Source: Anaerolineae bacterium (GTDB lineage Bacteria; Chloroflexota; Anaerolineae; Promineifilales; Promineifilaceae). From it: 64,000 bases of DNA. Position numbers and translations under genes: made by a program. The notes under the pieces were generated by a model. The model was not told the DNA's origin, ran no database searches, and worked only from the letters and a program-made list of their open reading frames with translations. Of this stretch, positions 1 to 64,000 are shown piece by piece. Where the stretch lies: the NCBI GenBank assembly GCA_020848035.1, contig JADLAX010000078.1, forward strand, positions 1-64,000. Direction: 5' to 3'. The stretch's first letter is position 1; the number at the start of each line of letters is the position of its first letter.

Positions 1-1257
1 ACCGTAGGACGCGGCACTTTTGTGAGTACGGCCGTACAACACCTCAGCCTGCAACCTACCGTCGGCCAATTCCTCACCCCAGACAGCGCCATCAACGATA
101 TGCTGGCCATCAACCAGGTCATCGGCGTGCGCTCCATGGCCATGGCCCACGCCGACCCGGCGCTGTTTCCCACCGACCTGTTTTGGGGGCAAATGGAACG
201 ATTGCGCCCAGAGGCCAACCAGCTGTTTAGCTACGGCCCCATCCAGGGCGACGCCGCCCTGCGGGTGGCCATCGCCCAGATGCTGCACGAAGACGGCATC
301 GTCGCCGCGCCCGACGACATTCTCATCACCTCGGGAGCGATGCAGTCGATTTCCCTGGCGGCGCAGGCAGTTTGCCAGCCAGGCGACGCGGTTTTGGTAG
401 AGCAGCCCACCTTTTTGGGCGTGCTCAACGTGCTCAAGGCGCAGGGATTACGGCCGTTACACCTGCCCATCCAGCCCGACGGCCCCGACCTGGCGCAGAT
501 GGAACAGCTCATCCAGACCCAGCGCCCGCGCTGCTTTTATACGGTGCCCAACTACCACAATCCCACCGGCACCACCACCAGCGCCGCCAAGCGGCAGGCC
601 ATCTACCAGCTGGCGCAGCAGCACAACCTGCTCATCATCGAAGACGACATTTACGGCAAGCTGGGCTTTTTTGGCCCGCCGCCGCCCAGCTACCGGCAGC
701 AAGACGGCGACGACCGGGTGCTTTACCTGAGCAGCTTCTCCAAAATGCTTATGCCCGGCCTGCGCGTGGGTTACCTGCTCATGCCGCCTGCCTGGCGCGA
801 CCAGCTGCTCACCCTGCGCCGCGCCACCGATTTGTGCGGCACCGGCTTGCTGCAACGGGCACTGGCCAATTTTGTCCAGGACGGCGGCCTGAAGCGGCAT
901 CTGCGGCGGGTGCTGCCCATTTACCAGGCGCGGCGGGATGCGCTGTTGACTGGTTTAAGACGGTGGATGCCAACGGCCGTTTGCTGGAGCGAGCCGCAAG
1001 GTGGCTTTAGCTGCTGGGTCAGCCTGCCCCGCTGCGCCCCGCCCGGCGTGCTGTACCATCAGGCGCTGCAAAACGGCTTCGCCTTCACCCCCGGCGAAGC
1101 GTACCTGCTGGACGACGACGGCCGCGAATATTTGCGGCTCTGCTTCGGCAACCTGGGCACCGATGGGATCGAAGCGGGTGTTAAGCTGCTTGCCACGCTC
1201 ATCCAACAGCAGCTCACCAGCGCCCCCTCCACCGGCGACTGGCTGCCCTTTGTTTAA
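1..1257 (+). CDS. MocR/PdxR-type GntR-aminotransferase fusion, 5' truncated by window edge
   Basis: The frame stays open to base 1 and reads TVGRGTFVSTAV, matching the end of a GntR wHTH (GRGTFV). It is followed by a class I/II aminotransferase domain (VPNYHNPTGTT, SSFSKMLMPGLRVGY). Confidence 0.8.
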   Translation, partial: TVGRGTFVSTAVQHLSLQPTVGQFLTPDSAINDMLAINQVIGVRSMAMAHADPALFPTDLFWGQMERLRPEANQLFSYGPIQGDAALRVAIAQMLHEDGIVAAPDDILITSGAMQSISLAAQAVCQPGDAVLVEQPTFLGVLNVLKAQGLRPLHLPIQPDGPDLAQMEQLIQTQRPRCFYTVPNYHNPTGTTTSAAKRQAIYQLAQQHNLLIIEDDIYGKLGFFGPPPPSYRQQDGDDRVLYLSSFSKMLMPGLRVGYLLMPPAWRDQLLTLRRATDLCGTGLLQRALANFVQDGGLKRHLRRVLPIYQARRDALLTGLRRWMPTAVCWSEPQGGFSCWVSLPRCAPPGVLYHQALQNGFAFTPGEAYLLDDDGREYLRLCFGNLGTDGIEAGVKLLATLIQQQLTSAPSTGDWLPFV

Positions 1258-1311
1258 TTTAATAGGACGCTGATGAACGCTGATTTTTTCGCAACCAACC
1301 AGGTAGCATTA

Positions 1312-1479
1312 CTCGTTCCCGCGCTCTGCGTGGGAATGACGACCAGGACGCTCCGCGTCCCGTGCGACGCGGTTGTAGCTTAAAAAAATATTCAGGTAAG
1401 CGTTGTGGGACGATTTTGCAAATCGTCCAGGCGATTTACAAAATCGCCCTACAGCATTCCACGCTCGGCGGGGAACGAG
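1312..1479. repeat. MITE-like/REP-like intergenic element, copy A (CTCGTTCCC...GGAACGAG ends)
   Basis: Inverted termini CTCGTTCCCGCGCTC / GGGGAACGAG; related to 9750-9852. Contains an internal double hairpin at about 1408-1449. Confidence 0.6.
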
Positions 1480-1536
1480 ACCTGTACAGTTTTCTGCGCT
1501 TGACCGCGTTTATCCGCGGCCCATTTTGGAGAATTT

Positions 1537-2931
1537 ATGAACCAGCAGCTTAAACACGACCAGACCCACCAGGCCGATCTGTTGGCGGCGACCTTCCAGG
1601 TGGCCAGCCAATTTTTAGAGGGGCTAGACGGCCGTCACGCGGCCGTTTTCCCCCACGACCAGTACCACCCCACCGACCTGCCCGAGGACGGCCTGGGGGC
1701 AGAAACGACCCTGGCCCAGTTCCGCCAGCGCTACGAAGACGGGCTGGCGGGCAGCGCCGGACCGCGCTACTTTGGCTTTGTCACCGGGGGCAGCACCCCC
1801 GCCGCGCTGGTGGGTGATTGGCTGGCCTCGGCCTACGACCAAAACCCGGCGGCCGACGAGGATTCCAACGCGCCGCAGGTAGAGCAGGAGGCGATTCACT
1901 GGCTGCGCCAGCTTTTTGGCCTGCCCGCTGACTTTGTGGGCACCTTCGTCAGCGGTGCCACGATTAGCAATTTTGTGGGATTGGCCCAGGCGCGTGAGTG
2001 GATGGGGCGGCAGCAGGGCATCAACGTAGCCGAGGATGGGCTGTGGGCGGTACGGCCGTTTCCCATCCTCGCCGCCACGCCCCATTCCAGCGCCAAAAAA
2101 GCGCTGGCCATGCTGGGCCTGGGTCGCCAGGCGATCACCCCCGTGCCCACGCTGCCCAACCGGGAAGCGATGGACGTGGCCGCCCTGGCCGAGATTTTGG
2201 CCACGCTGGACCAGCCCGCCGTGGTCATTGCCAGCGGCGGCACTGTGAATACCGTTGATTTTGACGATTTGCAGGCCATTGCCGCGCTCAAGCAAACGCA
2301 CAACTTCTGGCTGCACCTGGACGCCGCCTTTGGTGGTTTTGCCGCCTGCTCGCCCCAGTTTGCCCACCTGCTCACCGGGCAGGCCGCCGCCGATTCCATC
2401 ACCATCGACGCCCACAAATGGCTCAATGTGCCGTACGATTCGGCGATGACCTTCACCCGCCATCCCGAATTGCAGCTGGCGGCGTTTCAAAATTCGGCCG
2501 TTTACCTGGGCGACGTCAACGAAAATCCCAGCCTGGTGCACTGGACACCGCAAAATTCGCGTCGCTTCCGCGCCCTGCCTGCCTGGATGACCTTGCTGGC
2601 CTACGGCCGTTCCGGCTACCAGGACATCGTCGAGCGCAACTGCGCCCAGGCCCGCTGGCTGGGCGAACAAATTGTCCAGTCGGACCAGTTCCGCCTGCTG
2701 GCCCCGGTGCGGCTCAACTGCGTCTGTTTCACCCCGGCCAGCAACCCCAGCCTGGCAGAAATCCAGGCATTTTTGGCGAAAGTGCGGGACGACGGCCGTG
2801 TCTACCTGACCCAAACCGTCTACCAGGGCCAACCGGCCATTCGCGCCGCCTTTTCCAACTGGCAGACTGAGCAGCGGGATGTGGAAATTTGTTGGCAGGC
2901 GCTAAGCGAGTTGTTGGAGAGTGGAGATTAG
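1537..2931 (+). CDS. PLP-dependent group II decarboxylase / aminotransferase-fold enzyme
   Basis: HLDAAFGG and SITIDAHKWLNVPYDSAM (PLP lysine) motifs; group II decarboxylase layout. Confidence 0.8.
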   Translation: MNQQLKHDQTHQADLLAATFQVASQFLEGLDGRHAAVFPHDQYHPTDLPEDGLGAETTLAQFRQRYEDGLAGSAGPRYFGFVTGGSTPAALVGDWLASAYDQNPAADEDSNAPQVEQEAIHWLRQLFGLPADFVGTFVSGATISNFVGLAQAREWMGRQQGINVAEDGLWAVRPFPILAATPHSSAKKALAMLGLGRQAITPVPTLPNREAMDVAALAEILATLDQPAVVIASGGTVNTVDFDDLQAIAALKQTHNFWLHLDAAFGGFAACSPQFAHLLTGQAAADSITIDAHKWLNVPYDSAMTFTRHPELQLAAFQNSAVYLGDVNENPSLVHWTPQNSRRFRALPAWMTLLAYGRSGYQDIVERNCAQARWLGEQIVQSDQFRLLAPVRLNCVCFTPASNPSLAEIQAFLAKVRDDGRVYLTQTVYQGQPAIRAAFSNWQTEQRDVEICWQALSELLESGD

Positions 2932-2976
2932 AGATTGGAGATTGGAGACTCGCTCTATCTCCAATCTCTAATCTCC
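2923..2976. repeat. Perfect 20-bp inverted repeat hairpin (GGAGATTAGAGATTGGAGAT)
   Basis: Left arm 2923-2942, right arm 2957-2976, exact reverse complements with a 14-nt loop. The left arm overlaps the end of the upstream CDS. Confidence 0.9.
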
Positions 2977-2978
2977 TC

Positions 2979-3713
2979 ATGAGAATTATGTTAACTAAAG
3001 CGAGAACCCTTTCTCCCCCCACAACGGCCTTCTGGCAAGGCATCAAAGCCGAGCTGCCCATCACCATTGGCGTCATTCCGTTTGGCCTGATCTATGGCGT
3101 GCTGGGGCTGTCTGCCGGGCTGACGCCGCTGCAAGCCCAGGCGATGTCGTCAATTGTGTTTGCCGGATCGGCCCAATTTCTGGGGGCGCAGCTAATTGGC
3201 GTGGGCACACCGCTGCCCGTCTTGTGGCTGACGACGTTTATTGTGAACCTGCGCCACGTGCTGTACAGCACCGCGCTGGGGCCAGACGTGCAGCATCTGT
3301 CGCGCACCTGGCGCTGGCTGCTGGCCTATCTGCTCACCGACGAGGCGTATGCGGCAACGGCCGTTCACTACGGCAACCACCAAATCCCACTGGCGCACAA
3401 ACATTATTTCTGGCTGGGCGCCGGTTTGACGTTGTGGGGCGTGTGGCAGGCGAGTACGGCCGTTGGCATCCTGCTCGGCACCCAGGTGCCACCGGAATGG
3501 GGGCTAGATTTTACCCTGGCGCTCACCTTCATCGGCATCGTCGTGCCCAGCTTGAAGGACCGGCCCAACACGATGGCCGCGCTGACCGCCGGAGTGGTCG
3601 CCGTGCTGGCCTTTAACCTGCCGTACAAACTCGGTCTCATGCTGGCCACGCTCAGCGGCATCGCCGTCGGCGTCTGGCTGGAAAACCGGAAAGGGAAAAT
3701 GGGACGCGGATGA
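2979..3713 (+). CDS. azlC: AzlC family branched-chain amino acid permease
   Basis: Multi-TM; GVIPFGLIYGVLG and NLRHVLYSTAL motifs; followed by an AzlD-like gene. Confidence 0.85.
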   Translation: MRIMLTKARTLSPPTTAFWQGIKAELPITIGVIPFGLIYGVLGLSAGLTPLQAQAMSSIVFAGSAQFLGAQLIGVGTPLPVLWLTTFIVNLRHVLYSTALGPDVQHLSRTWRWLLAYLLTDEAYAATAVHYGNHQIPLAHKHYFWLGAGLTLWGVWQASTAVGILLGTQVPPEWGLDFTLALTFIGIVVPSLKDRPNTMAALTAGVVAVLAFNLPYKLGLMLATLSGIAVGVWLENRKGKMGRG

Positions 3714-3730
3714 ACGCAGATGCTTTGTAT

Positions 3731-6507: not shown

Positions 6508-7068
6508 ATGAAAGAGTACACCCAACTAGCCAACACCGACGTCCGCCGCGCCGACCGCGCCGTCACCGATGAGGCATGGATTCGCACCCTGCTGCACCGC
6601 GCCCCCGTGGGCGTGCTGGCCTTCAACCAGGGCGACCAGCCGTTCCTCAACAGCAACTTGTACGTCTACGATGAGGCGGCGCACGCCATTTACATGCACA
6701 CCGCCCGCGTCGGCCGTACCCCGGCCAACCTGGCCAGCGAGACCAAAATCTGCTTCACCATTTTTGAGATGGGCCGCCTGCTGCCCGCCGACGAAGCGCT
6801 GGAGTTCAGCGTGGAGTACAGCGGGGTGACCGTGTTTGGTACGGCCGTTACCGTCGACGACCCCACCGAAGCCCAACACGGCCTCCAACTGCTGCTGGAC
6901 AAATACGCCCCCCACCTCAAACCAGACGTCCATTACCGGGGCATCACGCCAGAGGAATTGAAGCGAACGGCCGTTTACCGCCTCAACATCCACGAATGGA
7001 GCGGCAAAAAGAAGGAAGTGGCCGAGGATTTTCCGGGGGCGTTTTATTACGGGCAGGAAGAACAGTAA
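6508..7068 (+). CDS. Pyridoxamine 5'-phosphate oxidase family protein (FMN-binding split barrel)
   Basis: APVGVLAFNQGDQPFLNSNLYVYDEAAHAIYMHTARVGRTPANL. Confidence 0.8.
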   Translation: MKEYTQLANTDVRRADRAVTDEAWIRTLLHRAPVGVLAFNQGDQPFLNSNLYVYDEAAHAIYMHTARVGRTPANLASETKICFTIFEMGRLLPADEALEFSVEYSGVTVFGTAVTVDDPTEAQHGLQLLLDKYAPHLKPDVHYRGITPEELKRTAVYRLNIHEWSGKKKEVAEDFPGAFYYGQEEQ

Positions 7069-12131: not shown

Positions 12132-14555
12132 TTACCGACTAAACAGGCCACGTTTGTCGTAGGACGTGGTGGCGATGCGGTGCAGGTCGCGCACAAACTG
12201 GTTCAGACCTGCGGCGAAGGAGTCGAGCTGGTCGGCGATGATGCGGACGGCGAGATCGTGGCGGCCAACGGCCGTTAACAACCCCACATGCGGCCGAAAA
12301 TCGCGCAAAGTCACGTGCATCATCTCTTCGTCATCGGTGATCACCGCCCAGGCCAGCTCCTTTTTCTCGTTGTCGTCTTTGGCCGTCATGAAGCGCGTCA
12401 GGCTGCTGCCCGGCGACACGCGCCCGACGTTGGAAAAGACCTCGCGCCCCTTGATGAGATCATTGAGCACGTCAAACTGGTCTGGGATTTTGTCCAGCAG
12501 CCGCTGCAGCGGCACGGGCAGATGGGCCAGCAGGCGAATCGTGTCCAGGCTGATGCTCTCCCCGGTGCTGGCGCGCACCTTGGCCCGGTTCAGCACTTCG
12601 CCAAACCCGGCCAGGATCGTCAGGTATGATTTTTGCAGCTTCTCGAACTGGCCGTAGATGTGCTGCCGGTTGCGCGTGGCCCGCTCGTAGTTGCGCAGCG
12701 CCGCCAGAGTGCGCTGGTGATGGCCGATCAGGTCCAGGTTGTCCAGCGGCACCTCAAAGGTCATCGGGTAAACGCGGTCACGCGGGCTGCGGCGGCTGGC
12801 GTCCACCGGGATGAGAATGACGGGGTTGCTGCTCGGGCTTTGGAGGGCGTCCAGGGCGGATTTGGCGGCGGCGGCGGTACGGCCGTCAGCCAACAGCTCC
12901 TCCAACTGCGTCACCAACTCCGGCGCGGGGCGGTAGGCCAGGGCATGGACCGTGCGGTAGAGCACCAGCAAATCATTCACCGTCATGCGCAGCAAATCGT
13001 TGCGCTGCTTGAACAGTTCGCGCAGCTCCAAAATGGCGGGCAGGTCAATGGCCGACGTCTCGGCGCTGGCCTCCACCGCTACCTGCGGCGCGGCCTGCAG
13101 GCGCTGCCGGTCGGCGGGGCGCAGCGCCAGCGCGGGCGCATACGGCCGATTCTGCGGCGCGGTCACCGGCGGCATGCTGTGCAAATAAACCGCCCAGGAC
13201 AGCGCCTCGTTGGTCAAAATTTCGGCCACCGCCGCGCCCCAAATGCCGTCAAAAAAGATGTGCGACAGGTCGAACACAAAGGTTTCGCCCGTGTCGAAAA
13301 TAGTCATCGGCTGGTCGCCAACGGCCCGTTCCGCCTGGCGCAGGTTGGCCAGCGGCTGGTGGCGCGACTGCTGATCGGTGTTGATCCAGATGGGGGCCAG
13401 GCGCAGGCTGGTCAGCTCCTGGCGCAGCCCTTCGCTGGTGCCGGACAAAAATTCGGGGAAGGCCGAGCGTTTTACCTGGGCCAGCTCGGCCAGGTTGGCA
13501 GGCGGCGGCTGGTCGGCCTGGTACATCAAATTGGTGATGTAGCCGCGCATGGTGGCCACGTTGAGGGGACGGCCGTTTTTGTCGGCACAGGCGGGTATCA
13601 GGTAATAGCGCCCACGATGAATGATGCCAATCTGCATTTGCTCCAGGGGAATGGGCTTGCGGTCTTCGCCGTAGAGCGACGGCTCCAGGTAGGCGCGGAT
13701 GCTAAGCTGCTGCTGGTAAGCAGGCAGCGACTGCGCTTCGGCGGCAGCAATTCGCTTTTGCCACGTTTCCTGCACGGCGGGCGGCAGCTGCAACACGGCT
13801 TCGGCCAGGAAAGCGTCAAATTTGCGGCGGCGGTAGGTGGGATAATCTTCTTGGGGCTGCACGTCGACGCCACGGCCGTACGGCCGTAATCGTTCCCAGC
13901 GCGGGTAGAGGGCGGCAAAGCGGGCGTGGTGGGGCAAATCGGCGGTCACTTCGCGCAGGATGGTGGTGTAGACACGTTCGCGCCATTCGTTTTCCAACAG
14001 GTTGTAATATTGGTGCAGGGTGTAAACGGCCGTCATTGCCAGCGCCGTCACCCGGTCCACCGGGGAAAGCTGCATCTGATGCTGGCGCAGCGTCGTGTCG
14101 AAGCCGTGGGTTTCGTAAGCGTGGCGGGCGGTGTCGTCGCGCAGGGCATAATCGACGTAAAACTGCCAGATGCCTTCAGGGAAGGAAGCGTCTATCTCTT
14201 TTCCGGCCAGCTTGAGCAAATTTTGGTAGGCCCACAAAACGGCCGCTGGCCCGGCAAAAAAGGTACCAAACACGGCTTTGTCGATGAGCGCCTGCTCGAC
14301 GCCTTTGAACAGCAGGTGAATATCGCGCCGCACCGTGGCCGCCGGGGGGATGCGGCTGGGCAGGCGCAGCAGGCCGTTCAGGATCACGCCAGGGACGTTA
14401 CCGGCGGGGGTATTTTTGGCGATAGCTGCAACCAGCTTATCGATTTCGGGCAAAGACAAGGACGACAACTCGTGCACCTTCCGGGTGTGGGCAATATTAC
14501 GAAGAGTATGAAGGGTCGCCTGGGTGGCGTCAATGGCGCGTTTACTATCGTCCAC
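12132..14555 (-). CDS. Large protein of uncertain function; possible CoA-dependent acyltransferase/condensation-like fold (HxxxDG)
   Basis: 807 aa; contains FVFDLSHIFFDGIWGAAVAEIL, resembling the HxxxDG signature. No other family recognised. Confidence 0.6.
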   Translation of the reverse strand: MDDSKRAIDATQATLHTLRNIAHTRKVHELSSLSLPEIDKLVAAIAKNTPAGNVPGVILNGLLRLPSRIPPAATVRRDIHLLFKGVEQALIDKAVFGTFFAGPAAVLWAYQNLLKLAGKEIDASFPEGIWQFYVDYALRDDTARHAYETHGFDTTLRQHQMQLSPVDRVTALAMTAVYTLHQYYNLLENEWRERVYTTILREVTADLPHHARFAALYPRWERLRPYGRGVDVQPQEDYPTYRRRKFDAFLAEAVLQLPPAVQETWQKRIAAAEAQSLPAYQQQLSIRAYLEPSLYGEDRKPIPLEQMQIGIIHRGRYYLIPACADKNGRPLNVATMRGYITNLMYQADQPPPANLAELAQVKRSAFPEFLSGTSEGLRQELTSLRLAPIWINTDQQSRHQPLANLRQAERAVGDQPMTIFDTGETFVFDLSHIFFDGIWGAAVAEILTNEALSWAVYLHSMPPVTAPQNRPYAPALALRPADRQRLQAAPQVAVEASAETSAIDLPAILELRELFKQRNDLLRMTVNDLLVLYRTVHALAYRPAPELVTQLEELLADGRTAAAAKSALDALQSPSSNPVILIPVDASRRSPRDRVYPMTFEVPLDNLDLIGHHQRTLAALRNYERATRNRQHIYGQFEKLQKSYLTILAGFGEVLNRAKVRASTGESISLDTIRLLAHLPVPLQRLLDKIPDQFDVLNDLIKGREVFSNVGRVSPGSSLTRFMTAKDDNEKKELAWAVITDDEEMMHVTLRDFRPHVGLLTAVGRHDLAVRIIADQLDSFAAGLNQFVRDLHRIATTSYDKRGLFSR

Positions 14556-14650
14556 AAGACGTTGCCTTTGCGTATGCTTTGAGGTCGGTACTACAAAAGG
14601 TGCGGGCTAATTATGCCGAATATAGAGGTTTCTGTAAACCATAAACCCCC

Positions 14651-14725
14651 ACCCTGGCCCTCCCCCTCGCAGGGGGAGGGAATCTGGCTCCCTCTCCCTC
14701 GCAGGGAGAGGGTTGGGGTGAGGGT
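14651..14725. repeat. Double-hairpin repeat (CCCTCCCCCT..AGGGGGAGGG, CCCTCTCCCT..AGGGAGAGGG), copy 1
   Basis: 75 bp; near-identical to 40317-40391 in inferred structure and length. Confidence 0.85.
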
Positions 14726-14731
14726 AAAGTC

Positions 14732-17105: not shown

Positions 17106-17174
17106 TGTCATTCCCGCGCAGGCGGGAATCTACTCAAGCGAAGAAAGTGGATACCCGCCTGCGCGGGTATGACA
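17106..17174. repeat. MITE-like repeat TGTCATTCCCGC...GCGGGTATGACA, copy 2
   Basis: Matches 3731-3800 with the same inverted ends. Confidence 0.75.
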
Positions 17175-17198
17175 CTACAATTTCCAATCTGACCTGAT

Positions 17199-18704
17199 TC
17201 AGCGCTTGACGTTGCGCCACACGGCCGTTTCTCCCCACGGATCATAAACAGCGGATTCGGCTACCTGAACGTTCTTGCCGCCACCCTGGAGCAGCTCAAA
17301 AACGGCCGCTCCCAACCAGCCATCATCGTCCAGCGGGGCAGGCTGCCAGTTGGGTAGATGCTCTGGCAGGTAGTTGGTGCTGGTGTGGCGGCGGCGGAAA
17401 GTTGGCTCGTGCAGGATGGCCAGCAGGTAAGGAATGTTGGTTGTGACGCCTAACACTACCGTCTGCTGCAGGGCGCGAATCATCTTGCCGATGGCCTCTT
17501 CGCGGCTGTGGCCCCAGGTGATCACCTTGGCCAGCATTGGATCGTAGTAGGGCGAAACGGCCGTGCCCGACTCAATGCCATCATCCACGCGAATGCCAGG
17601 GCCAGACGGCCGTTCGTACATCACAATCTGGCCAATCGACGGCAAAAAGTTGTTGGCGGGATCTTCCGCATAAACGCGGCATTCGATGGCGTGGCCGCGC
17701 TGGCGCAGATCGTCTTGGGTGAAGGGCAGCGCCTCGCCCGCAGCAATGCGAATCTGCCAGACGGCAATGTCGAGACCCGTCACCAGCTCGGTGATGGGAT
17801 GCTCCACCTGAAGCCGGGTGTTCATCTCCAAAAAGTAGAAACCGCCCTTTTCATCAACGATAAATTCCACCGTACCCGCGCTGCTGTACCCCACCGCCTG
17901 GGCCAGGGAAACGGCCGCTGCCGCCATGCGCTGCCGCAATCCCTCATCCTGGATCACCGGGGCGGGTGTTTCTTCGATGATTTTTTGGTGGCGGCGCTGA
18001 ATGCTGCATTCGCGCTCGAACAGGTGCAGCACGTGGCCGTGCTGGTCGCCCAATACCTGGATTTCCACGTGATGAATCTCGGTGAAATATTTTTCCACCA
18101 GGACGTGATCGTCGCCGAAGGAGTTTTTGGCCTCGCCGCGGGCGGCCTGCACCGCGTCGGCAAATTCGGCGGCAGACCAGACAACGCGCATCCCTTTGCC
18201 GCCACCGCCCGCGCTGGCCTTGATGAGAATGGGATAGTCAATGTGGGCAACGGCCGTTTGCAATTCCGCCGCACTTAGCCCCGCCCCATCCACGCCGGGC
18301 ACGATTGGCACACCCGCTTGCTCGGCCAGCTCGCGCGATTTGGCCTTGCTGCCCATCAATTCCATTGCCGCCGGGCTGGGACCGATAAAAACAATGCCTT
18401 TTTCCGCACAGGCAGCGGCAAAAGCGGCATTTTCGCTCAAAAAGCCGTAGCCAGGATGGATCGCCTCAGCGCCACATGCCTGGGCGATGTCCAGGATGGC
18501 GGACTGGTTCAGGTAGGTGTCCGTGGCGCTGGTGCCGGGCAGGTTGTACCGCTGGTCGGCCAGCCGCACCCAGGGCGCGTCTGCATCGGCATCGGAATAG
18601 ATGGCAACGGCCGTAATCCCCAGTTCATGGCAGGCCACAATCAGCCGCCGCGCAATTTCCCCTCGATTGGCAATCAACACTTTCTGAAACATACTTTTTC
18701 CCAT
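17199..18704 (-). CDS. accC: Biotin carboxylase subunit (acetyl-/acyl-CoA carboxylase)
   Basis: MFQKVLIANRGEIARRLIVACHELGI; GYGFLSENAAFA; EMNTRLQVEHPITELVTG; VDDGIESGTAVSPYYDPMLAKVI. Confidence 0.92.
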   Translation of the reverse strand: MGKSMFQKVLIANRGEIARRLIVACHELGITAVAIYSDADADAPWVRLADQRYNLPGTSATDTYLNQSAILDIAQACGAEAIHPGYGFLSENAAFAAACAEKGIVFIGPSPAAMELMGSKAKSRELAEQAGVPIVPGVDGAGLSAAELQTAVAHIDYPILIKASAGGGGKGMRVVWSAAEFADAVQAARGEAKNSFGDDHVLVEKYFTEIHHVEIQVLGDQHGHVLHLFERECSIQRRHQKIIEETPAPVIQDEGLRQRMAAAAVSLAQAVGYSSAGTVEFIVDEKGGFYFLEMNTRLQVEHPITELVTGLDIAVWQIRIAAGEALPFTQDDLRQRGHAIECRVYAEDPANNFLPSIGQIVMYERPSGPGIRVDDGIESGTAVSPYYDPMLAKVITWGHSREEAIGKMIRALQQTVVLGVTTNIPYLLAILHEPTFRRRHTSTNYLPEHLPNWQPAPLDDDGWLGAAVFELLQGGGKNVQVAESAVYDPWGETAVWRNVKR

Positions 18705-18770
18705 ACCTACCCATAGAGTGAGCCAATCTTGCAGCGTGGCCCACGCTCGGTCAGTCATTCTAGACGGTTG

Positions 18771-19784: not shown

Positions 19785-20561
19785 TCACTCTGCCTGCCAC
19801 CACGGTTTGCGCTTTTGCAGGAAGGAACTCATGCCTTCGCGCCCTTCGTCGCTGTCGCGCAGGCTGGCAATGAGCTCGGCGGTGTAGCCGCGCATCGCCG
19901 CTTTGGGCTGGTAGGCCACCTGGCGAATGAGCGCTTTGGCCGCAGCCTGGGCACCGGGGGCGGCCTGGAGGAGCTGGTGGATGCGGTCGGAGACGGCCGT
20001 ATCCAACTCCTCATCGGCCACCACATGGTTCACCAACCCGATTTGCTGCGCCTTGGTCGCGCCAAACCGCTCGCCGGTCAGGAACAGTTCACGCGCCTCG
20101 TTGGGGCCAATCTTACCCAGCACAAACGGCGAAATGACGGCAGGCACAATGCCCAGGCGCGTCTCGCTAAAACCAAACTGCGCCCGATCCACGGCCACGA
20201 CGATGTCGCAGCAGCTCACCAGCCCCACGCCGCCGCCAATCGCCGCCCCGTTAATCCGGCCAATGACTGGCCGGGAACACTGTTCGACCATCAGCATCAG
20301 GTCAAAAATCGCTTCGCCATCCTGCACATTTTCGGCAAAAGTGTAGTCGGCGGCCGCCCGCATGAAGCTCAAATCGGCCCCGGCACAGAAGGAACGGCCG
20401 TTGCCCGTCAGCACCACCACGCGAATTTCATCAGGGATTGTTTGGAAAACGGCCGTTAGCGCCCCAATCATGCCCGGCGTCAGCGCATTGTGCACCTCCG
20501 GCCGGTCCAGCGCCACCGTCAACACCGCCCCATCCTGCCTCACCTCAATCTCACTCACCAC
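19785..20561 (-). CDS. Enoyl-CoA hydratase/isomerase family protein
   Basis: ALDRPEVHNALTPGMIGAL; GNGRSFCAGADLSFM; GRINGAAIGGGVGLVSCCDIVVA. Confidence 0.92.
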   Translation of the reverse strand: MVSEIEVRQDGAVLTVALDRPEVHNALTPGMIGALTAVFQTIPDEIRVVVLTGNGRSFCAGADLSFMRAAADYTFAENVQDGEAIFDLMLMVEQCSRPVIGRINGAAIGGGVGLVSCCDIVVAVDRAQFGFSETRLGIVPAVISPFVLGKIGPNEARELFLTGERFGATKAQQIGLVNHVVADEELDTAVSDRIHQLLQAAPGAQAAAKALIRQVAYQPKAAMRGYTAELIASLRDSDEGREGMSSFLQKRKPWWQAE

Positions 20562-27818: not shown

Positions 27819-27879
27819 AAAGTTTTACGCTTATAGACGACTCCTTTTCACACGCAAAAATCTCTATCACTTTTGAATT

Positions 27880-27949
27880 GGACACTGATTTTCACTGATC
27901 AACGCTGATTTTTGTTCTTATCTGTGTCAATCAGCGTTCATCAGTGTCC
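27880..27949. repeat. Word-repeat hairpin (GGACACTGATTTTCACTGATCAACGCTGATT / AATCAGCGTTCATCAGTGTCC)
   Basis: Complementary arms; the same word occurs at 1264-1286. Confidence 0.75.
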
Positions 27950-27952
27950 GGT

Positions 27953-29873: not shown

Positions 29874-31607
29874 TCATTCCACCAACTCCGGCCATAACCC
29901 TATCGCGCTCATGATGGCCGAAGCGGCCGTTTGCCCCAACCCGCACAACGATGTCTGCGTCATGGTAAAGCCCACGTCCAGCAGCAGCTGCCTGTCGCCG
30001 GGCTGCGCCTCACCCTGGTGGATGCGGTTCAGGATTTCTAGCTGGCGCTGGGTGCCAATCTGGCAGGGGAAACATTTGCCGCAGCTTTCGTGGGCAAAAA
30101 AGTGGGCCAGTTCAAAGAGGTGCTGCTGGAGATCGGCCGTTTCGTCAAACACCATAATCACGCCCGAGCCCAGCGGAAAACCCGCCGCCCGGGCATCTTC
30201 GTAGGTCAGCGGTGTATCCAGCTTGTCTGGTCCGATGAACGCGCCTGCCGCGCCGCCCATGAGCACCGCCTGCACCGCGTGGCCGCCGGGCACACCGCCC
30301 GCCAGCTCAATCATCTGGCGCACCGTCAGCCCAAAAGGCACTTCGTACACCCCCGGGTCGGCCACGTTGCCGCTCAGGCAAAACAGCTTGGTGCCCGGCG
30401 ATTTTTCCGTGCCGTGCTCTGTCCATTCCGCCTCGCCCACGCTGAGCGCGGCCAGCATCGCCACCAGCGTTTCCACGTTGTTCACCGAGGTGGGCTGGCC
30501 AAACAGCCCGTGGGTGGTGGGAAACGGCGGTTTGATGCGCGGGAAGCCGCGCTTACCTTCGATGGCTTCAAACAGGGCCGTCTCCTCGCCGCAAATGTAC
30601 GCCCCGGCGCCCAACCGCACGTGCACCGTAAAGTTGAAGCCCGGCTTACCCAAAATATTCTTGCCCAGGTAGCCCGCCTCATACGCCCGGTCTACCGCGT
30701 TGTGCAGCCGGGTGTGCGCCCGGGGATACTCGCCGCGCAGAAAAATCCAGCCATTTTCCGCGCCGACGGCATACGCCGCCACGGTCATCGCTTCAATCAG
30801 AGCAAACGGATCTTCTTCCATCAGGCAGCGGTCTTTGAAGGTGCCGGGTTCGCTCTCGTCGGCATTGACCACGATGTGCTTTTGGCGCGGATCGTCCGAC
30901 GCGCCGCGGGTGAAAAACCATTTGCGCCCCAGGGGGAACATCGCCCCACCGCGCCCCAAAATGCCAAAACTGTCCACCGTTTCGATCAGGGCCTCAGGCG
31001 TCTGGGCCACCGCCTGGCGCAGCCCCTTGTAGCCACCAGCGGCCTCGTATTCGGCCAGGCTCATCGGGTCGATTTTGCCAATGCGCTTGAGCTTGATGAA
31101 AGGCCCGCCGCGCGGCCGGGCCAGCGGTTCGGGATGGGTGCCGTCGAGAAAAGCGGGCACGTTGTCGACGGCGAGGCTGCCTGCCGGGCGCTCGCCGTTG
31201 AGGGCACAGGGAGCGTGTTCACACATGCCCAGGCAAGGCACGGTTTCAAAGGTGAGACGGCCGTCTTCACTCGTTTCGCCCGGTTCCAGCCCCAATTTGC
31301 CTTCGATGGCCTGGATGACGGCATGGCTGCCCGCCTGGCTGCACGCCAAATCCTCACACACGCGGATGACATGGCGGGCCGTCGGCTGGCTGTAAAACAT
31401 CGAGTAAAACGCAACCACGCCGTGAATGTCGGCCAGGGGCACACGCAGCGTTTTGCCGATGGCTTCCTGCACTTCGGGCGGCAGCCAGCCGTAGATGTCT
31501 TGGGCCTGATGGAGAAGGGGGAGAAGGGCTTCGCGTTTACGGCCGTTGTACTTTTCCAACAGCGGGGTCAGCAGGGTCAGGTCAATCGTTTGCACAGCAG
31601 TGGTCAC
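29874..31607 (-). CDS. Fused NuoE-NuoF-like NADH dehydrogenase subunit
   Basis: NuoE part (VCEDLACSQAG...VPCLGMCEHAPC) followed in frame by NuoF part (GRGGAMFPLGRKW, SEPGTFKDRCLME, GAGAYICGEETALFEAIEGKRG, ESCGKCFPCQIGT). Confidence 0.9.
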   Translation of the reverse strand: MTTAVQTIDLTLLTPLLEKYNGRKREALLPLLHQAQDIYGWLPPEVQEAIGKTLRVPLADIHGVVAFYSMFYSQPTARHVIRVCEDLACSQAGSHAVIQAIEGKLGLEPGETSEDGRLTFETVPCLGMCEHAPCALNGERPAGSLAVDNVPAFLDGTHPEPLARPRGGPFIKLKRIGKIDPMSLAEYEAAGGYKGLRQAVAQTPEALIETVDSFGILGRGGAMFPLGRKWFFTRGASDDPRQKHIVVNADESEPGTFKDRCLMEEDPFALIEAMTVAAYAVGAENGWIFLRGEYPRAHTRLHNAVDRAYEAGYLGKNILGKPGFNFTVHVRLGAGAYICGEETALFEAIEGKRGFPRIKPPFPTTHGLFGQPTSVNNVETLVAMLAALSVGEAEWTEHGTEKSPGTKLFCLSGNVADPGVYEVPFGLTVRQMIELAGGVPGGHAVQAVLMGGAAGAFIGPDKLDTPLTYEDARAAGFPLGSGVIMVFDETADLQQHLFELAHFFAHESCGKCFPCQIGTQRQLEILNRIHQGEAQPGDRQLLLDVGFTMTQTSLCGLGQTAASAIMSAIGLWPELVE

Positions 31608-31954
31608 TAGGCACCTCTTGGTTCTATTGCCTATTGGTCTGGTGAAATAGTGGGTAAGAGCCAGGCCAGGTTTTAGTTTTTCGGCCCAGGAAGACCATAA
31701 AACGGCCGGGGCCGATTGATGCTGAATCGATCCCATTGTAACTGAGATAAATCAGTTTACCAATGAGAAGCCTTTTCACCTGCATTTCAAAATATGGCGT
31801 AGGGGCGGGACGGCGCGGTATGGTTTGGCCTAAAATCGGTCATCTTATCTCCGCGCCATCTCGCCCTGCCTGGTGGTGACGGCCGTTTTGGGTGAGACAG
31901 GCGGGAGGCAAGACCCTTCTTCTGGCCAGGATCTTGGCCTGCCTGTCCCACCTA

Positions 31955-36200: not shown

Positions 36201-36484
36201 CCAAAATAATCACCATCAACTACAGCAGCAGCAATGGAACGGCCGTTGCTGGGGAAGATTTTACGGCCGTGGCCCCCGCCACGCTCACCTTCAACCCTGG
36301 CGATCCGCTCAGCCAGACCATCAGCGTCACCATCCAGGGCGACGAAGAGACCGAGCCGGATGAGCAGTTTTTCATCAACCTCAGCGGCGGCAGCAACGTC
36401 ACCTTGAGCGACAACCAGGGCATCGGCACCATCCGCAACGATGACGGCCACTTCCTCTACCTGCCGTTCATCGTCAAGCCCTAA
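33245..36484 (+). CDS. Giant secreted right-handed beta-helix protein with Calx-beta repeats (paralog 1)
   Basis: Signal peptide; CSIRDAI; GGG(I/L)/SxNTA parallel beta-helix repeats; repeated SVTEGNSGTT..VDYATVDGTA..DDD Calx-beta units; C-term FLYLPFIVKP. Confidence 0.88.
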   Translation: MDSMKRNVISLGPAFFLAVFILPALISIFRHANTAHAATLTVNIFYDENDTVCDSSCSIRDAIAQAVNGDDITIPPGTYTLSATNGALAVAKNLTFNGDNATTTFIDAQNTSRVFNVTAGTVTLNNLTLQNGVEVNGAGMFISGLSTSVTLNSAVVISNTASGSGGGFYVQSGTLILQNSDVMTNTAALDGGGIYSHRGAVTSSSSRINYNVALRGGGVHVNQDSAIFTLNSGEVSYNQGNQLVDSFPGGGIFVGAGQAILNGGEVKFNTAYRGGGILISSGQATLNNAQIISNTATYGGGVYVYNLAAQFTQTAGTIAYNSAIGPIDFGGGGLYIFNGSAALLGGEVVTNTAASHGGALELRFGTLTLDGATLSGNEAGHMGGAIYNSGGEATIHNSLISHNTAGDGGGGLATNYDSAPSQTLIENSTLLNNSTSTTTSGGAVLATGQSSVAGGVITLTNVTLSGNGAGAGAGLANEQGSTAVLTNVTIADNSANNNGGGLSNGSGGSLTVGNSIIFGNSAASGPDCSGTITSAGHNISTCGLSGSGDGSSDPLLEPLALNDGSTLNYALADGSPARDGGSNTLCPAADQRGNLRPIDGDGDNTSTCDVGSYEHGLGFFITDASLTEGNSGSAQLSFVITRSFITSTTTTVDYATVDGTALAGTDYTAVPSTTLTFLPATMTQTVTVDVLGDTLDEIDEQFTVVLGNQSAGVLVGDFSGAATILDDDDPPSLTLEDTALFEGDSGTVTAVFTATLSAPSGKTITVDFDTVDGTAVANGDYDAASNTITFAPGETEQTVDIIVNGDLLDEEDSETFTVALSNASNVTLADSSAEGTILDDDPLPTLSIANASVTEGNSGTTTMNFLVTLDAPSGRTVTVTYATSAGTATAGVDYVATSGSLTFVAGDTQETISVTVNGDAIDEINETFLVTISTPTNATLDDAEATGTITDDDPQPTASINDVSVEEGDSGTVTAVFTVTLSAASTKIITINYSSSNGTAVAGEDFTAVAPATLTFNPGDPLSQTISVTIQGDEETEPDEQFFINLSGGSNVTLSDNQGIGTIRNDDGHFLYLPFIVKP

Positions 36485-57706: not shown

Positions 57707-58465
57707 ATGTATCCGATTTGGGGGCGCTTAGGCCCTTTTTTTGTCTACGGCTACACGGCCGTATTTGCCGTCGGCCTGCTGTTAACCTGGGGCCTTATGC
57801 ATTGGCAGGCTGGCAAAACAACGCTGCCTCGCTGGCCCGATGCCGCTTTGGCGGCGCTGCTCACCGGCTGGATGGGGGCGCGGCTGGGCTTCCTCTGGCT
57901 CAACTGGGGCTATTTTATGGAACGGCCGTCTGAACTCACCCATCTCTGGCAGGGCGGACAAACCGCTTACGGGGCACTTAGCGGCGGGCTGCTGGGGCTG
58001 GGATTGTGGTGCTGGTGGCAGAAACGGCCGTTCCTGCCCACCGCCGCCTTCTTTGCCCCCGGCCTGCTGCTGCTCATCACCACTGGCTGGGCGGCGTGCT
58101 GGGTAGAGGGCTGCGCCTACGGCCAGACAACGCTGCTTGGTCCGTTCTCGGCCAACCTGCCCGACCAATACGGCGTGTTTGCCGTGCGCACCCAGACCCA
58201 ACTGCTGGGCGTGGCGTTAAACCTGCTGGCGCTGGCCGTTGTGCTGCTGTGGCAAAAGCGGTGGGGGAACGGCCGTCTCTTCCCCCTCACCCTGCTGCTG
58301 GCCAACCTCATCCACCTCGGCCTCACCTTCCTGCGCGGCGATGCGGCCCCGCGGCTGGCAGGCTGGCGGCTGGACAGCTGGCTGGCCCTGCTGTTCGCCA
58401 TTGTTGGATTATTGCTGCTACAATACGGCCGTCAAAAAAGCAAGCAAGGGGCACGTGGCAAGTAG
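57707..58465 (+). CDS. Prolipoprotein diacylglyceryl transferase (Lgt)-like membrane protein
   Basis: GPFFVYGYTAVFAVGLLLTWGL; LTGWMGARLGFLWLNWGYF; GGQTAYGALSGGLLG; CWVEGCAYG. Confidence 0.75.
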   Translation: MYPIWGRLGPFFVYGYTAVFAVGLLLTWGLMHWQAGKTTLPRWPDAALAALLTGWMGARLGFLWLNWGYFMERPSELTHLWQGGQTAYGALSGGLLGLGLWCWWQKRPFLPTAAFFAPGLLLLITTGWAACWVEGCAYGQTTLLGPFSANLPDQYGVFAVRTQTQLLGVALNLLALAVVLLWQKRWGNGRLFPLTLLLANLIHLGLTFLRGDAAPRLAGWRLDSWLALLFAIVGLLLLQYGRQKSKQGARGK

Positions 58466-60459: not shown

Positions 60460-60675
60460 GGGCGGCCCCCCGTGGCCGCCCAAACAGCGTGAACAGAACG
60501 TTATTCCCCGAAAAATTGATTGAATCAGGATTGATATTCAGAACATTCGTGCTAAAATCACCCGCATTGGCCGCACCGGGCGCTGTGTTTGTTGAGCCAA
60601 TTTTTCTGGGCGCACGAATTTAAGCGAGAGCAATTGCGTGACCACGGCAAACTCTCTCGCCCTTGCTTCAGGAGA

Positions 60676-61737
60676 ATGGATATGACAAACGATGAAGATC
60701 AGGTTGTAAGCCGCCGCAATTTCATCAGAGCCGCCGCCCTGACGGCCGTGGCCGCCACCGCCACCGGGGCCGGTGCCGCGCTGTACAACGAGGCGCTCTC
60801 GGCTCCCGCCAGCATGACTGTTAACCCCGCCAACGCCGCAGTTCCTGCTGTGGGTACGGCCGTAATCCCCCCCAGCAGCACCGCCGCTGCCGACGCCTTT
60901 ACTCGCCTGGCCGCCGCCCAGGCGGAAAACGTGCGCCTGCAAGCCGCGCTCGACGCCGCCCAACGCCAGCTCACCAGCTTCCAGCAAAACAACCAGACCG
61001 CCGCCGACAGCAGCCAGGCGCTTTCCGTAGAGCTGGGCCAGGCCAACGAGCAGATCGGCATCCTGGCCGGGCTGATTGCCCTGTACGAACAGCTCGATGC
61101 CGTGGATGTGGCTGCGGCCGTCGAAAACGGCCTGACCAACTTTGGCGGCGAGGTGGAAACGATGCTGGCCGAGGTGCCTAGCCTGGCCGAAAGCATTCAG
61201 ATGGGCCGCCAGGCGCTGGAAAATTTTGAAGTCCAGGTGCCGATTTTGGACAACGGCCGTCTCTGGCTCATCGATCATCTCAGCAAAATTGAGGGGTATT
61301 TCCAGGCGGTGGAGCGCCTGCTCAGCGAGGCAGTGGAGCGGGTTGGCCCCTTCCTGCAAATGCTCAACGACTGGTTCGAGAGCCTGCGCAAATGGCTGCC
61401 TTTTGGCATAGGCCAGACGGCCGCTACCGTTATGGTCTCCATCACCGACCTGATCATGGAGACGCCCAACACAGTCAACGGGCTAGACACCAACATCACC
61501 CAACCGCTCAACGTCTGGCTCAACCGCGACCAGAACAACGAGACCGCCCTGCACCAGACCCTCATCAAGCCCCTGCGCGATGACCTGATGCCCAAAGCCG
61601 ACGGCGTCGTCAGCAAAACCCAGCACATGAACGAAACCTACAAAACGGCGCTCAAAGAACCGGTGGAAACGGCCGTTGCCAGCCAGCGCACCATTCGCAG
61701 TTTAATTACCAACTACCGTCAGCAGCACAGTGTTTGA
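60676..61737 (+). CDS. Tat-signal secreted/anchored coiled-coil protein of unknown function
   Basis: SRRNFIRAAALTAVAATATGAGA twin-arginine signal; heptad-rich 'LAAAQAENVRLQAALDAAQRQL'. Confidence 0.65.
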   Translation: MDMTNDEDQVVSRRNFIRAAALTAVAATATGAGAALYNEALSAPASMTVNPANAAVPAVGTAVIPPSSTAAADAFTRLAAAQAENVRLQAALDAAQRQLTSFQQNNQTAADSSQALSVELGQANEQIGILAGLIALYEQLDAVDVAAAVENGLTNFGGEVETMLAEVPSLAESIQMGRQALENFEVQVPILDNGRLWLIDHLSKIEGYFQAVERLLSEAVERVGPFLQMLNDWFESLRKWLPFGIGQTAATVMVSITDLIMETPNTVNGLDTNITQPLNVWLNRDQNNETALHQTLIKPLRDDLMPKADGVVSKTQHMNETYKTALKEPVETAVASQRTIRSLITNYRQQHSV

Positions 61738-61741
61738 AAGA

Positions 61742-61786
61742 AGTAAAAAGTGGACTGTTCACTTTTCACTTTTCACTTTTTACTGA
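61742..61786. repeat. Word-repeat hairpin (AGTAAAAAGTG / CACTTTTCACTTTTCACTTTTTACT)
   Basis: Complementary words; same words as 7071-7133. Confidence 0.7.
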
Positions 61787-61800
61787 TTACCGACCACCAC

Positions 61801-63018
61801 TCAAGTAGGCGCAGTATCCAGGGGCGGCGCAACGGCCAGGAAGTCGTAAGCGAAGCGCTGGCTGTAATTGCGGATGAGCTGCTCCACCCGCTCGTGCTGC
61901 GGCGAGGCGACAATCAGCCCAGCGTGCTGCTGTTTATGCACGCGGTACACAATTTCAGCGTCCTGGTAGCCAGACAGATCGGGCCACTCCTGCCGCGCCA
62001 GGCAAATCATCACCCCGGCGTACGCGCCCTTGTCCTCTGGCACCTGGTACTCCTGGCCACGCAGAGCGGCCGTTTCCAACCGCGCCCACTCCGCCCACAA
62101 ATTAATCCCGCTGGACGCTTCCACCAACTGTTCGATATTGGCCCCCCCAACGCGTGCGGCCGTTTCCAAAAAGTAAAATTCGCCGTCTGGCCCCTTGATA
62201 AACTCGGTGTGCGCCACGCCGCGCACCATGCCCAACGCCAAAATCAGCTGATTGTGCAGCTTGAGCAGCGCTTTCGTTTCTTTGTCCTTACGCGGCATCG
62301 TACGCGTCACAAAAACGCCGCCGTCGTGGGCCACATCAATGGGCGGCTGCAAATATTGGTGCGCCGTGGCAAAAACCACTTTACCCTGCCACACAATGGC
62401 GTCCACGTGGTAAACCGGCCCCGCCACGTACTGCTCCAGCAAAAAGTACGACTGCAAATCGCCCAATTCATCCAGCTTGCGCCACAGCATCTCAGCATGA
62501 TCCATGCGTTTGATGCCCATTGCCCCCGCCTCGGCGCGCGGCTTAAGCAGCCAGGGTGGCGGCACCCGGCCCATAAATTCACGCAGCTGATCGTAGTTGA
62601 AAACGGCCGTAAATTCCGGCACCCTAAACCCTTCCTGCCGCGCCTTCACCCGCATCGCCAGCTTATCACGAAAGTGGCGCATCACCGACTCGCCCATGTT
62701 GGGCAGGCGGAAATGCTCCCGCAGCGCCGCCGCTGTCAGCACGTCATAATCATCCAGCGGGATGATCTGGTCCACCGCCTTGCCGCGCATAAAGTAAGCA
62801 ATTGCATAAATGATGTCCGGCTGTTTAGACAACTGCGGCATGTAAAACACGTCGTCGATGCTGTCCCACGGCCACGGCTCGTTGTGCAGCTTGTCTCGCG
62901 TTACCAGCGCCACGCGGCAGCCCGCCGCTTTGGCGGCTGTTAAAAAAGTGGTTCCCTTAAAATAGCTGGCCAGGCACAAAATCGTCACCGGCTTTTCGGC
63001 AGAGTTCAAATCAGACAT
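61801..63018 (-). CDS. ATP-grasp domain protein
   Basis: PWLLKPRAEAGAMGIKRMDHAEMLW; YFLLEQYVAGPVYHVDAIVWQGKVV; FYFLETAARVGGANIEQLVEASSGINLW. Confidence 0.85.
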   Translation of the reverse strand: MSDLNSAEKPVTILCLASYFKGTTFLTAAKAAGCRVALVTRDKLHNEPWPWDSIDDVFYMPQLSKQPDIIYAIAYFMRGKAVDQIIPLDDYDVLTAAALREHFRLPNMGESVMRHFRDKLAMRVKARQEGFRVPEFTAVFNYDQLREFMGRVPPPWLLKPRAEAGAMGIKRMDHAEMLWRKLDELGDLQSYFLLEQYVAGPVYHVDAIVWQGKVVFATAHQYLQPPIDVAHDGGVFVTRTMPRKDKETKALLKLHNQLILALGMVRGVAHTEFIKGPDGEFYFLETAARVGGANIEQLVEASSGINLWAEWARLETAALRGQEYQVPEDKGAYAGVMICLARQEWPDLSGYQDAEIVYRVHKQQHAGLIVASPQHERVEQLIRNYSQRFAYDFLAVAPPLDTAPT

Positions 63019-63172
63019 ACATTCCTCGGATTATTGTTTTTGCAGCAGTTGTTTAGGGCGCTTTGGGACTTCAGGGGTTTAGCAGCGAATTGGCGCGAAT
63101 TTTCACGAAAATTCGCATTAATTCGCTGCGAAAATTAGTCTGACCCACCAAATCCGAAAAGCCCCACTTTTG

Positions 63173-63961
63173 CTAGATGAGCAGCAGAATGATGGTCACA
63201 ACTGCGGCAATCGTCAAGACAAAAAAGCTGATGATGAGCAAAATGACCAGCCAATCGGTGTCTTCTCGACTGGCCGGGCGGTAGCTGGTGGAGAAATTGG
63301 CCACCGCCACGGCCGAATCCTCTCCCATCGCCCCCTCTGCGCGGTCAACCGGAGCGGGCACGGGCGTGGTGGGCACATACGGTGCCAGCAGCTCCGGCGT
63401 CACCTCCAGCTCGTCCTCACTGTCCATCGCCTCAGACAGAATGGTGACCAACTTTTCGTCGAGAACGGCCGTACGCCGGTTAGCCGTAAACGCCGCTTCC
63501 TCAGACGTTTCTTCGGTCTCGGCCTGTATCTCGGGCGGTGCCAGCTTGCGCACCCAGACGGGCAGCTCGTTACCCGTGCTTTCGGGCACAGCAGCCGCCC
63601 GGGCTTTTACTGCCGTTAATGCCGTCAGCAGCTCCTCACTATCCGCCAAAACCTCGCGGGAATTGCCCGTCAACGCCCCCAGCGGATCGCTTTTCATCAC
63701 TTCAATGTCTCGGGCCAGCAAGTAATATTGCAAGCGTTCGGGGTCAAACATCAAATGGCCGCTGGCACGGACCTCATCCCCCACATACAGCTGGGTATCA
63801 TCCTTCGTATGGCAGTTTAAATAATGCATCTCTTCCGCCAAGACAAACCCATCTTTATGCAACCGACTCACCTTCCCCACCACAAACACCAGGCCCAATG
63901 GTAATTCAGGTGGCAGCTTCGAGGCCAAACGGCCGTTCAGCCGACTTACCGAAATGTCCAT
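63173..63961 (-). CDS. Hypothetical protein with C-terminal TM anchor
   Basis: Soluble N-term (VFVVGKVSRLHKDGFVLAEEMHYL..), acidic/Pro-rich middle, C-term WLVILLIISFFVLTIAAVVTIILLLI. Confidence 0.6.
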   Translation of the reverse strand: MDISVSRLNGRLASKLPPELPLGLVFVVGKVSRLHKDGFVLAEEMHYLNCHTKDDTQLYVGDEVRASGHLMFDPERLQYYLLARDIEVMKSDPLGALTGNSREVLADSEELLTALTAVKARAAAVPESTGNELPVWVRKLAPPEIQAETEETSEEAAFTANRRTAVLDEKLVTILSEAMDSEDELEVTPELLAPYVPTTPVPAPVDRAEGAMGEDSAVAVANFSTSYRPASREDTDWLVILLIISFFVLTIAAVVTIILLLI

Positions 63962-64000
63962 AACAAACTCCCAAAATCACGCTAAAAAACCTATTCTGGT

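What the first reader, a model, noticed from the sequence alone, without database searches (positions are those of the whole stretch)
1..64000. Highly iterated palindrome ACGGCCGT (often AACGGCCGTT) across the whole window: a HIP1-like system with a new word
Seen directly: a manual scan finds about 120 exact ACGGCCGT copies in 64 kb, for example 28, 450, 973, 2052, 4792, 6841, 10821, 13872, 20393, 20450, 26222, 31540, 36239, 36263, 39952, 46044, 54077, 58024 and 63929. That is about one per 0.5 kb. At about 60% GC roughly 2 are expected, so enrichment is tens-fold. Near variants (GCGGCCGT, TCGGCCGT, ACGGCCGC) add more. Established: cyanobacteria carry HIP1 (GCGATCGC) at comparable density, associated with methylation and of unresolved function. 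Inference: this genome maintains its own genome-wide octamer, possibly tied to a CGGCCG-recognising (EagI-type site) orphan methyltransferase, repair/mismatch bias, chromosome organisation, or DNA uptake. No methyltransferase for it is visible in this window.
Basis: partly seen in the sequence, partly recalled or inferred. Interest (0 to 1): 0.93.

Follow-up and report, generated by a model that had tools for sequence, protein, structure and literature searches.

The report
Chloroflexota genome saturated with one palindrome
This uncultured Chloroflexota bacterium carries the 8-letter palindrome ACGGCCGT about 12,900 times, at nearly every place where its proteins allow it, and relatives use altered versions of the word; this resembles the unexplained HIP1 repeats of cyanobacteria and gives new ways to test how such repeats are kept.

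Summary
ACGGCCGT occurs 124 times in the window (1.7-6 expected by Markov order 1-3) and 12,866 times in the 7.65-Mb genome; the reversed control word occurs 64 times. In 400 genomes sampled across the phylum no genome outside one Anaerolineae family shows it. Inside the family the core CGGCCG persists while the outer base changes (ACGGCCGT, TCGGCCGA, GCGGCCGC or mixed), one lineage has TGCCGGCA, and the deepest branches have little or none.

The sites are actively maintained. 97% of window sites aligned to a congener are identical where the amino acids are identical (control 31%). About 95% of all peptide positions that could encode the word do so. Core-breaking near-miss words are depleted. 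New here: octamer sites sit at a sharp local GC-skew switch (3' side C-rich, 5' side G-rich, about 40 bp), absent at control palindromes, nearly absent in hexamer-only relatives and at matching positions lacking the site.

This is a HIP-class system, not HIP1 itself. The predicted methyltransferase was not identified: the best phyletic candidate, a COG1743/DUF1156-like protein, also occurs in relatives without the word. The mechanism (repair drive, uptake drive or binding-site selection) stays open.

The parts
1..64000 (.). window carrying 124 copies of ACGGCCGT, mean spacing 520 bp; 121 in coding sequence (2.11 per kb), 3 in non-coding (0.46 per kb)
28..35 (.). HIP site ACGGCCGT (first copy)
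   Evidence: exact match
450..457 (.). HIP site
6841..6848 (.). HIP site
13872..13887 (.). two HIP sites abutting (13872-13879 and 13880-13887), the closest pair in the window
20394..20401 (.). HIP site (reader gave 20393)
36239..36246 (.). HIP site
36263..36270 (.). HIP site 24 bp further on
58024..58031 (.). HIP site
63929..63936 (.). HIP site (last copy)
17199..18758 (-). example gene inside the stretches aligned to G003, G001 and G002 in which site conservation was measured (519 aa)
29874..31736 (-). NuoE/F-like gene (PF01257, PF01512), part of the stretches aligned to G001-G003

Best explanation
ACGGCCGT is a highly iterated palindrome (HIP) of the same class as cyanobacterial HIP1 but with its own word. 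It belongs to one family of Anaerolineae (Chloroflexota) and most probably arose or became strong within that family. It is not a mobile repeat: copies form in place by substitution. A site-centred process that reads the palindrome, and responds to about 20-40 bp on either side, converts permissive sequence into the word and keeps it there, synonymously almost everywhere and often by amino-acid change (Thr-Ala-Val, [Tyr/His/Asn/Asp]-Gly-Arg, Arg-Pro). SHOWN: copy number, family restriction, word switching around a CGGCCG core, near-saturation of permissive peptides, synonymous conservation, depletion of near-miss words, and a HIP-coupled strand-antisymmetric C/G skew. INFERRED, and the mechanism I commit to (about 0.35 on its own): strand-directed repair started at, or terminated by, the modified palindrome, in which mismatches are resolved towards the word (a repair drive of the kind Elhai proposed). 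The outer base and flanks would be read by the repair or nicking factor rather than by the methyltransferase alone. Elhai's specific G-mC rule does not explain an outer A, T or G, because GGCC already contains GC.
For: Copy number and specificity. Family restriction: (outside the family at most 471 copies in 7.7 Mb). Word switching; rpoB tree with at least 8 changes of word state. Conservation: 60/78, 36/50 and 17/19 window sites identical in three congeners against 10.1, 7.5 and 6.4 expected; where amino acids are identical 56/58, 36/37 and 17/17 sites are kept against 31%, 34% and 54% in controls. Saturation by own word only: G000 118/127 and 315/329, TCGGCCGA 191/261 and 157/217, GCGGCCGC 212/256, TGCCGGCA 50/80; HIP-negative Anaerolineae 2/70. 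Core-breaking neighbours 241 observed, 363 expected (0.66) against 0.96 in HIP-negative sequence, outer-base neighbours enriched 2.2-fold. Coding preference. Antisymmetric flank skew in octamer genomes, near zero at orthologous positions without the site, no excess folding, background substitution rate in flanks. Realised sites are not limited to gaps: unrealised permissive places are only slightly nearer other sites than random.
Against: No methyltransferase, nickase or repair factor was shown to go with the word. G007 has the CGGCCG hexamer in excess but no hit for PF00145, PF01555 or the P0001 family, although it is 94% complete. Strong selection for a binding site would give the same saturation and conservation. 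The skew is a C/G exchange without matching A/T asymmetry, which no repair error signature known to me explains. Short gaps (<50-100 bp) are mildly under-represented in four of six genome sets, which fits selection for spacing or steric exclusion better than a purely local drive. Classic HIP1 on two cyanobacterial plasmids shows only weak skew, so the skew is not a constant property of HIPs.
Confidence: 0.5

Rival explanations
1. Selection for a binding site: an abundant chromosome-organising, replication or topology protein binds the palindrome with soft contacts in the flanks, and each site is favoured by selection.
For: Flank preference around the octamer looks like an extended footprint; mild repulsion of sites closer than 50-100 bp in four of six genome sets; flank skew and octamer state go together, hexamer-only genomes show almost none.
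Against: Near-saturation regardless of local density would demand appreciable selection on each of about 12,900 sites; flanks evolve at the background synonymous rate; the skew has a weak tail beyond 150 bp.
Confidence: 0.25
2. Uptake drive: the word is an import signal for natural transformation, and biased uptake plus recombination accumulates it, as proposed for Haemophilus USS and Neisseria DUS.
For: Comparable density; accumulation by substitution, effect on peptide composition and soft flanks are known or proposed for uptake sequences (established knowledge; PMC1939737, found and not read in full, treats their genome dynamics).
Against: Known uptake words are non-palindromic and favour intergenic sites (own knowledge); here the word is palindromic and 121 of 124 sites are coding. 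Uptake genes were not searched for.
Confidence: 0.12
3. Methyltransferase-linked mutation or protection alone: the modified CGGCCG core is kept by modification, the outer bases come from the enzyme's extended preference.
For: Core CGGCCG is conserved while the outer base changes; an orphan COG1743/DUF1156-like MTase is found in 40 of 52 family genomes; it is absent from G019 and the five g5 genomes, which have the core but no fixed outer base, and from G011, G023 and G013, which lack the core excess.
Against: The same protein is in the sister family without the word and in many HIP-negative phyla; g4 genomes have it but no fixed outer base; G014 has the octamer without it; independent contrasts are too few to test.
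Confidence: 0.13
4. A by-product of base composition, codon bias or a tandem or mobile repeat.
For: The word is GC-rich, and Thr-ACG plus Ala-GCC are common codons.
Against: Codon usage predicts 15.6 realised sites, 119 are seen; other words with the same codons are not enriched; conservation and loss go site by site in alignments; the reversed word is rare.
Confidence: 0.01

Closest known systems
Cyanobacterial HIP1 (GCGATCGC) and alternate HIPs, Elhai 2015, PMC4390886
   Same: Palindromic GC-rich octamer once per about 0.4-3 kb across the genome; deviations concentrated at the first and last base; occasional replacement by another word; tolerated in coding sequence. In a small cyanobacterial sample tested here 40/52 permissive peptides encode HIP1.
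   Different: Different phylum and core (CGGCCG); the outer base switches A, T, G or is free within one family; no universal cognate C5/N4 methyltransferase found; strong flank skew in octamer genomes, only weak at HIP1 on PCC 7002 pAQ7 and T. variabilis plasmid A.
DNA uptake sequences (Haemophilus USS, Neisseria DUS)
   Same: Very many copies of a short word, kept by substitution, affecting peptide composition (own knowledge)
M.Ssp6803II (GGm4CC) of Synechocystis, PMC6560206
   Same: A methyltransferase acting on GGCC, the centre of the word (abstract)
   Different: No orthologue tested; PF01555 proteins of full length are not universal in the family
COG1743/DUF1156-like DNA methyltransferases (P0001 family found here)
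   Same: Orphan MTase gene in most family genomes
   Different: Target unknown; widespread in organisms without the palindrome

Membership tests
HIP class (highly iterated palindromes) | one palindromic octamer enriched tens-fold genome-wide at about 300-2700 per Mb | tested here: met
   12,866 in 7.65 Mb = 1,681 per Mb; 20x over order-3 expectation in the window
HIP class (highly iterated palindromes) | single-base deviations concentrated at outer positions | tested here: met
   outer-base neighbours 2.2x, core-breaking neighbours 0.66x
HIP class (highly iterated palindromes) | alternate words in some relatives | tested here: met
   TCGGCCGA, GCGGCCGC, mixed CGGCCG, TGCCGGCA
HIP class (highly iterated palindromes) | methyltransferase specific for the core present when the word is frequent | tested here: inconclusive
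   no C5 or full-length N4/N6 family is universal; P0001 family is near-universal but not specific
HIP class (highly iterated palindromes) | core methylated in native DNA | not testable with these tools
   needs native long reads
HIP1 proper | word GCGATCGC | tested here: not met
   GCGATCGC occurs once in the window
DNA uptake sequences | non-palindromic word enriched in intergenic DNA | tested here: not met
   palindrome; 2.11 per kb coding, 0.46 per kb non-coding
DNA uptake sequences | preferential uptake by competent cells | not testable with these tools
   uncultured organism

The most novel reading that the evidence does not exclude
Octamer HIPs are the focus of a so far undescribed strand-symmetric DNA process that acts outward on both sides, rewrites C/G composition over about 40 bp and converts any permissive sequence into the word. 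The hexamer CGGCCG state without skew would be a separable precursor or relic. This would be a genome-wide sequence drive independent of known methyl-directed repair.
Probability: 0.3. Interest if true: 0.92.

Novelty: new variant of a known kind. Interest (0 to 1): 0.75.

Why it matters
HIP1 has been known in cyanobacteria since the 1990s without an agreed function or mechanism. A second phylum with the same phenomenon, with near-complete saturation and with several switched words inside one family, is a natural experiment for separating drive from selection. The HIP-coupled skew is a new quantitative footprint that any mechanism must explain. The literature searches held here found no report of a CGGCCG palindrome of this kind in Chloroflexota, nor of such a skew.

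Tried and rejected
Order-6 Markov test: uninformative because its 7-mers contain the signal. C5 methyltransferases: present in half the genomes; one orthologue shared by G019, G073 and G074 looked like the core enzyme, but its sequence resembles Dcm (recognised from memory of the family motifs), so a CCWGG-type target is more likely, and it was dropped. P0001 as sufficient cause: rejected by its presence in HIP-negative phyla and in the sister family. Hairpin or cruciform selection in the flanks: no pairing covariation, no excess folding over within-flank shuffles compared with a control palindrome. Deamination as source of the skew: A/T composition does not follow. Purifying selection on flank bases: synonymous identity equals background. 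Flank skew as a universal HIP property: weak at classic HIP1 on two cyanobacterial plasmids. A viral scan with the H+-PPase found nothing. A plasmid search meant to find cyanobacterial records returned mainly other organisms. No structure prediction was run, because it would not decide the target.

Full report
What was checked. Expected numbers are 1.7, 3.2, 6.3 and 15 under Markov orders 1 to 4, and no other palindromic octamer exceeds 11. The genome G000 (7.65 Mb, 104 contigs) has 12,866 copies and 64 of the reversed control. The enrichment is genome-wide and real.

Where it occurs. The organism is a Chloroflexota, class Anaerolineae: named records closest by one protein are uncultured Anaerolineae, Ardenticatenales and Promineifilum-type MAGs. 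Of 400 genomes drawn evenly from the phylum, none outside the window's family exceeds 471 copies. Within the family (52 genomes) most octamer genomes have 2,900-12,900 copies. Two genomes have TCGGCCGA instead (7,668 and 9,414 copies). One has GCGGCCGC (42 of 43 CGGCCG in a 20-kb sample). Genera g4 and g5 and G019 have CGGCCG with no fixed outer base (samples). G013 has 3,665 TGCCGGCA and almost no CGGCCG. G011, G029 and G023 show no excess. On an rpoB tree these last three, with the weak G022, lie towards the base, and the word state changes at least eight times. TCGGCCGA marks one clade (G009 and G033), of which G019 has become mixed. The simplest reading is a gain or strengthening within the family, followed by switches of the outer base and one change of core; support on several inner branches is modest.

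How it sits in the genome. 121 of 124 window sites are coding, 2.11 per kb against 0.46 per kb non-coding. They fall in three frames: Thr-Ala-Val (68), [Tyr/His/Asn/Asp]-Gly-Arg (37) and x-Arg-Pro-x (16). Of the peptide places that could encode the word, 118 of 127 in the window and 315 of 329 in 200 kb of another contig do so (one search gives 119 of 128 with 15.6 expected from codon usage). Permissive peptides are themselves 3.5-4 times more frequent than amino-acid composition predicts, so the word has changed proteins. The realised percentage is inflated by this. The unbiased measure is the number of unrealised places: 23 against 124 expected permissive places in G000, while HIP-negative Anaerolineae have 68 unrealised against 91 expected permissive. 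The effect follows each genome's own word: TCGGCCGA 191/261 and 157/217, GCGGCCGC 212/256, TGCCGGCA 50/80, and HIP1 40/52 in a small cyanobacterial sample, while foreign words are at background.

Conservation. Aligned to three congeners (78.5, 78.7 and 86.9% identity), 60 of 78, 36 of 50 and 17 of 19 window sites are identical, where trinucleotide-context rates predict 10.1, 7.5 and 6.4. Where the amino acids are identical, the site is kept in 56 of 58, 36 of 37 and 17 of 17 cases, against 31, 34 and 54% of other 8-base stretches. Sites are therefore lost almost only when the protein changes. Core-breaking one-base neighbours are depleted to 0.66 of expectation (0.96 in HIP-negative sequence), while neighbours with a changed outer base are enriched 2.2-fold. 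This is the pattern Elhai reports for HIP1 (PMC4390886).

A HIP-centred skew. In G000 the 3' side of each site, on both strands, is C-rich and G-poor, and the 5' side the reverse: skew (C-G)/(C+G) is +0.44 at 3-5 bp, +0.39 at 6-10, +0.23 at 11-20 and +0.09 at 21-40, with a weak tail. At fourfold-degenerate third positions 1-9 bp away it swings from -0.62 upstream to +0.67 downstream, so protein sequence is not the cause. At 10-20 bp A and T hardly change, so this is a C/G exchange rather than deamination. It is present in every ACGGCCGT sample, in TCGGCCGA and GCGGCCGC genomes, in G013 at TGCCGGCA and in a Leptolyngbya-type cyanobacterial sample. It is absent at TGGCCA, CAGCTG and other control palindromes, at CGGCCG in HIP-negative genomes, and nearly so in the hexamer-only g4 and g5 genomes. 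At positions where a congener lacks the site, its flanks show +0.09 or -0.02, while G000 with the site shows +0.29. There is no pairing covariation and no excess folding, and flanks evolve at the background synonymous rate. At classic HIP1 on PCC 7002 pAQ7 and T. variabilis plasmid A the skew is only weak. I found no earlier description, but only open-access papers could be searched.

Spacing. Short gaps are about half as common as random in G000 and rarer still in G033; G016 shows no such effect and long gaps are close to random. Unrealised permissive places are slightly nearer other sites than expected (about 2 s.d. pooled, computed by hand). This gives weak support to spacing selection or steric exclusion, and does not support a simple rule of one site per kilobase.

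The methyltransferase question. No C5 (PF00145, 24 of 52 genomes) or full-length N4/N6 family (PF01555) is universal. In G003, G062 and other octamer genomes the PF01555 search reduces mainly to weak split hits, of which the recurring one is a 656-aa COG1743/DUF1156-like protein, found in 40 of 52 genomes and apparently vertically inherited. It is missing from G019 and the g5 genomes (core without fixed outer base) and from G011, G023 and G013. It is also missing from the octamer genomes G014 and G005, which may be assembly gaps, and present in g4, which has no fixed outer base. It occurs in the sister family without the word and in HIP-negative Desulfobacterota, Latescibacterota and others. 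It is a lead, not a cause shown; independent contrasts are too few. None of the C5 or N4 genes of G000 lies on the window's contig C78.

Judgement. This is a HIP-class system in a second phylum, with new words and new quantitative features. That it is a maintained, non-mobile, word-specific system I hold at about 0.95. The mechanism is open: repair drive about 0.35, binding-site selection about 0.25, methyltransferase alone and uptake drive each a little over 0.1, something undescribed the rest.

Noticed in passing
window 14645-14730, 17106-17176, 27872-27950: Intergenic repeats of 70-85 bp with dozens of further copies in G001-G003 (REP/MITE-like).
   Followed up: no
G000 and relatives, genome-wide: GCCGGC is strongly avoided in several HIP genomes (864 in G000, 132 in G019, 51 in G016) and CGGCCG is avoided in the TGCCGGCA genome G013 (447): reciprocal avoidance of the two palindromes.
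   Followed up: no
G000:C26:214052-216019 (minus strand), not in window: 656-aa COG1743/DUF1156-like orphan methyltransferase, order motif I - Zn-ribbon-like middle - DPPY, conserved across many phyla; target unknown.
   Followed up: partly
G009:C1:577107-579030: The P0001 orthologue of this TCGGCCGA genome is in two overlapping frames (possible frameshift or sequencing error).
   Followed up: no
L001 (G001:C1, 16.8 kb): Contig without any ACGGCCGT excess but 25 GAGCTC; probably foreign DNA in this bin.
   Followed up: no
L215 (Burkholderiaceae bacterium CTSoil_111): TGCCGGCA 9 times in 22 kb: possible HIP-like word in Proteobacteria.
   Followed up: no
G019, genome-wide: CGGCCG at 5.1 per kb (21,019 in 4.1 Mb), 365 of 460 permissive hexamer places realised in the sample, yet little flank skew.
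   Followed up: partly
L093 (G003:C2): SPPY-type methyltransferase next to a NurA-like gene, probably a defence locus.
   Followed up: no
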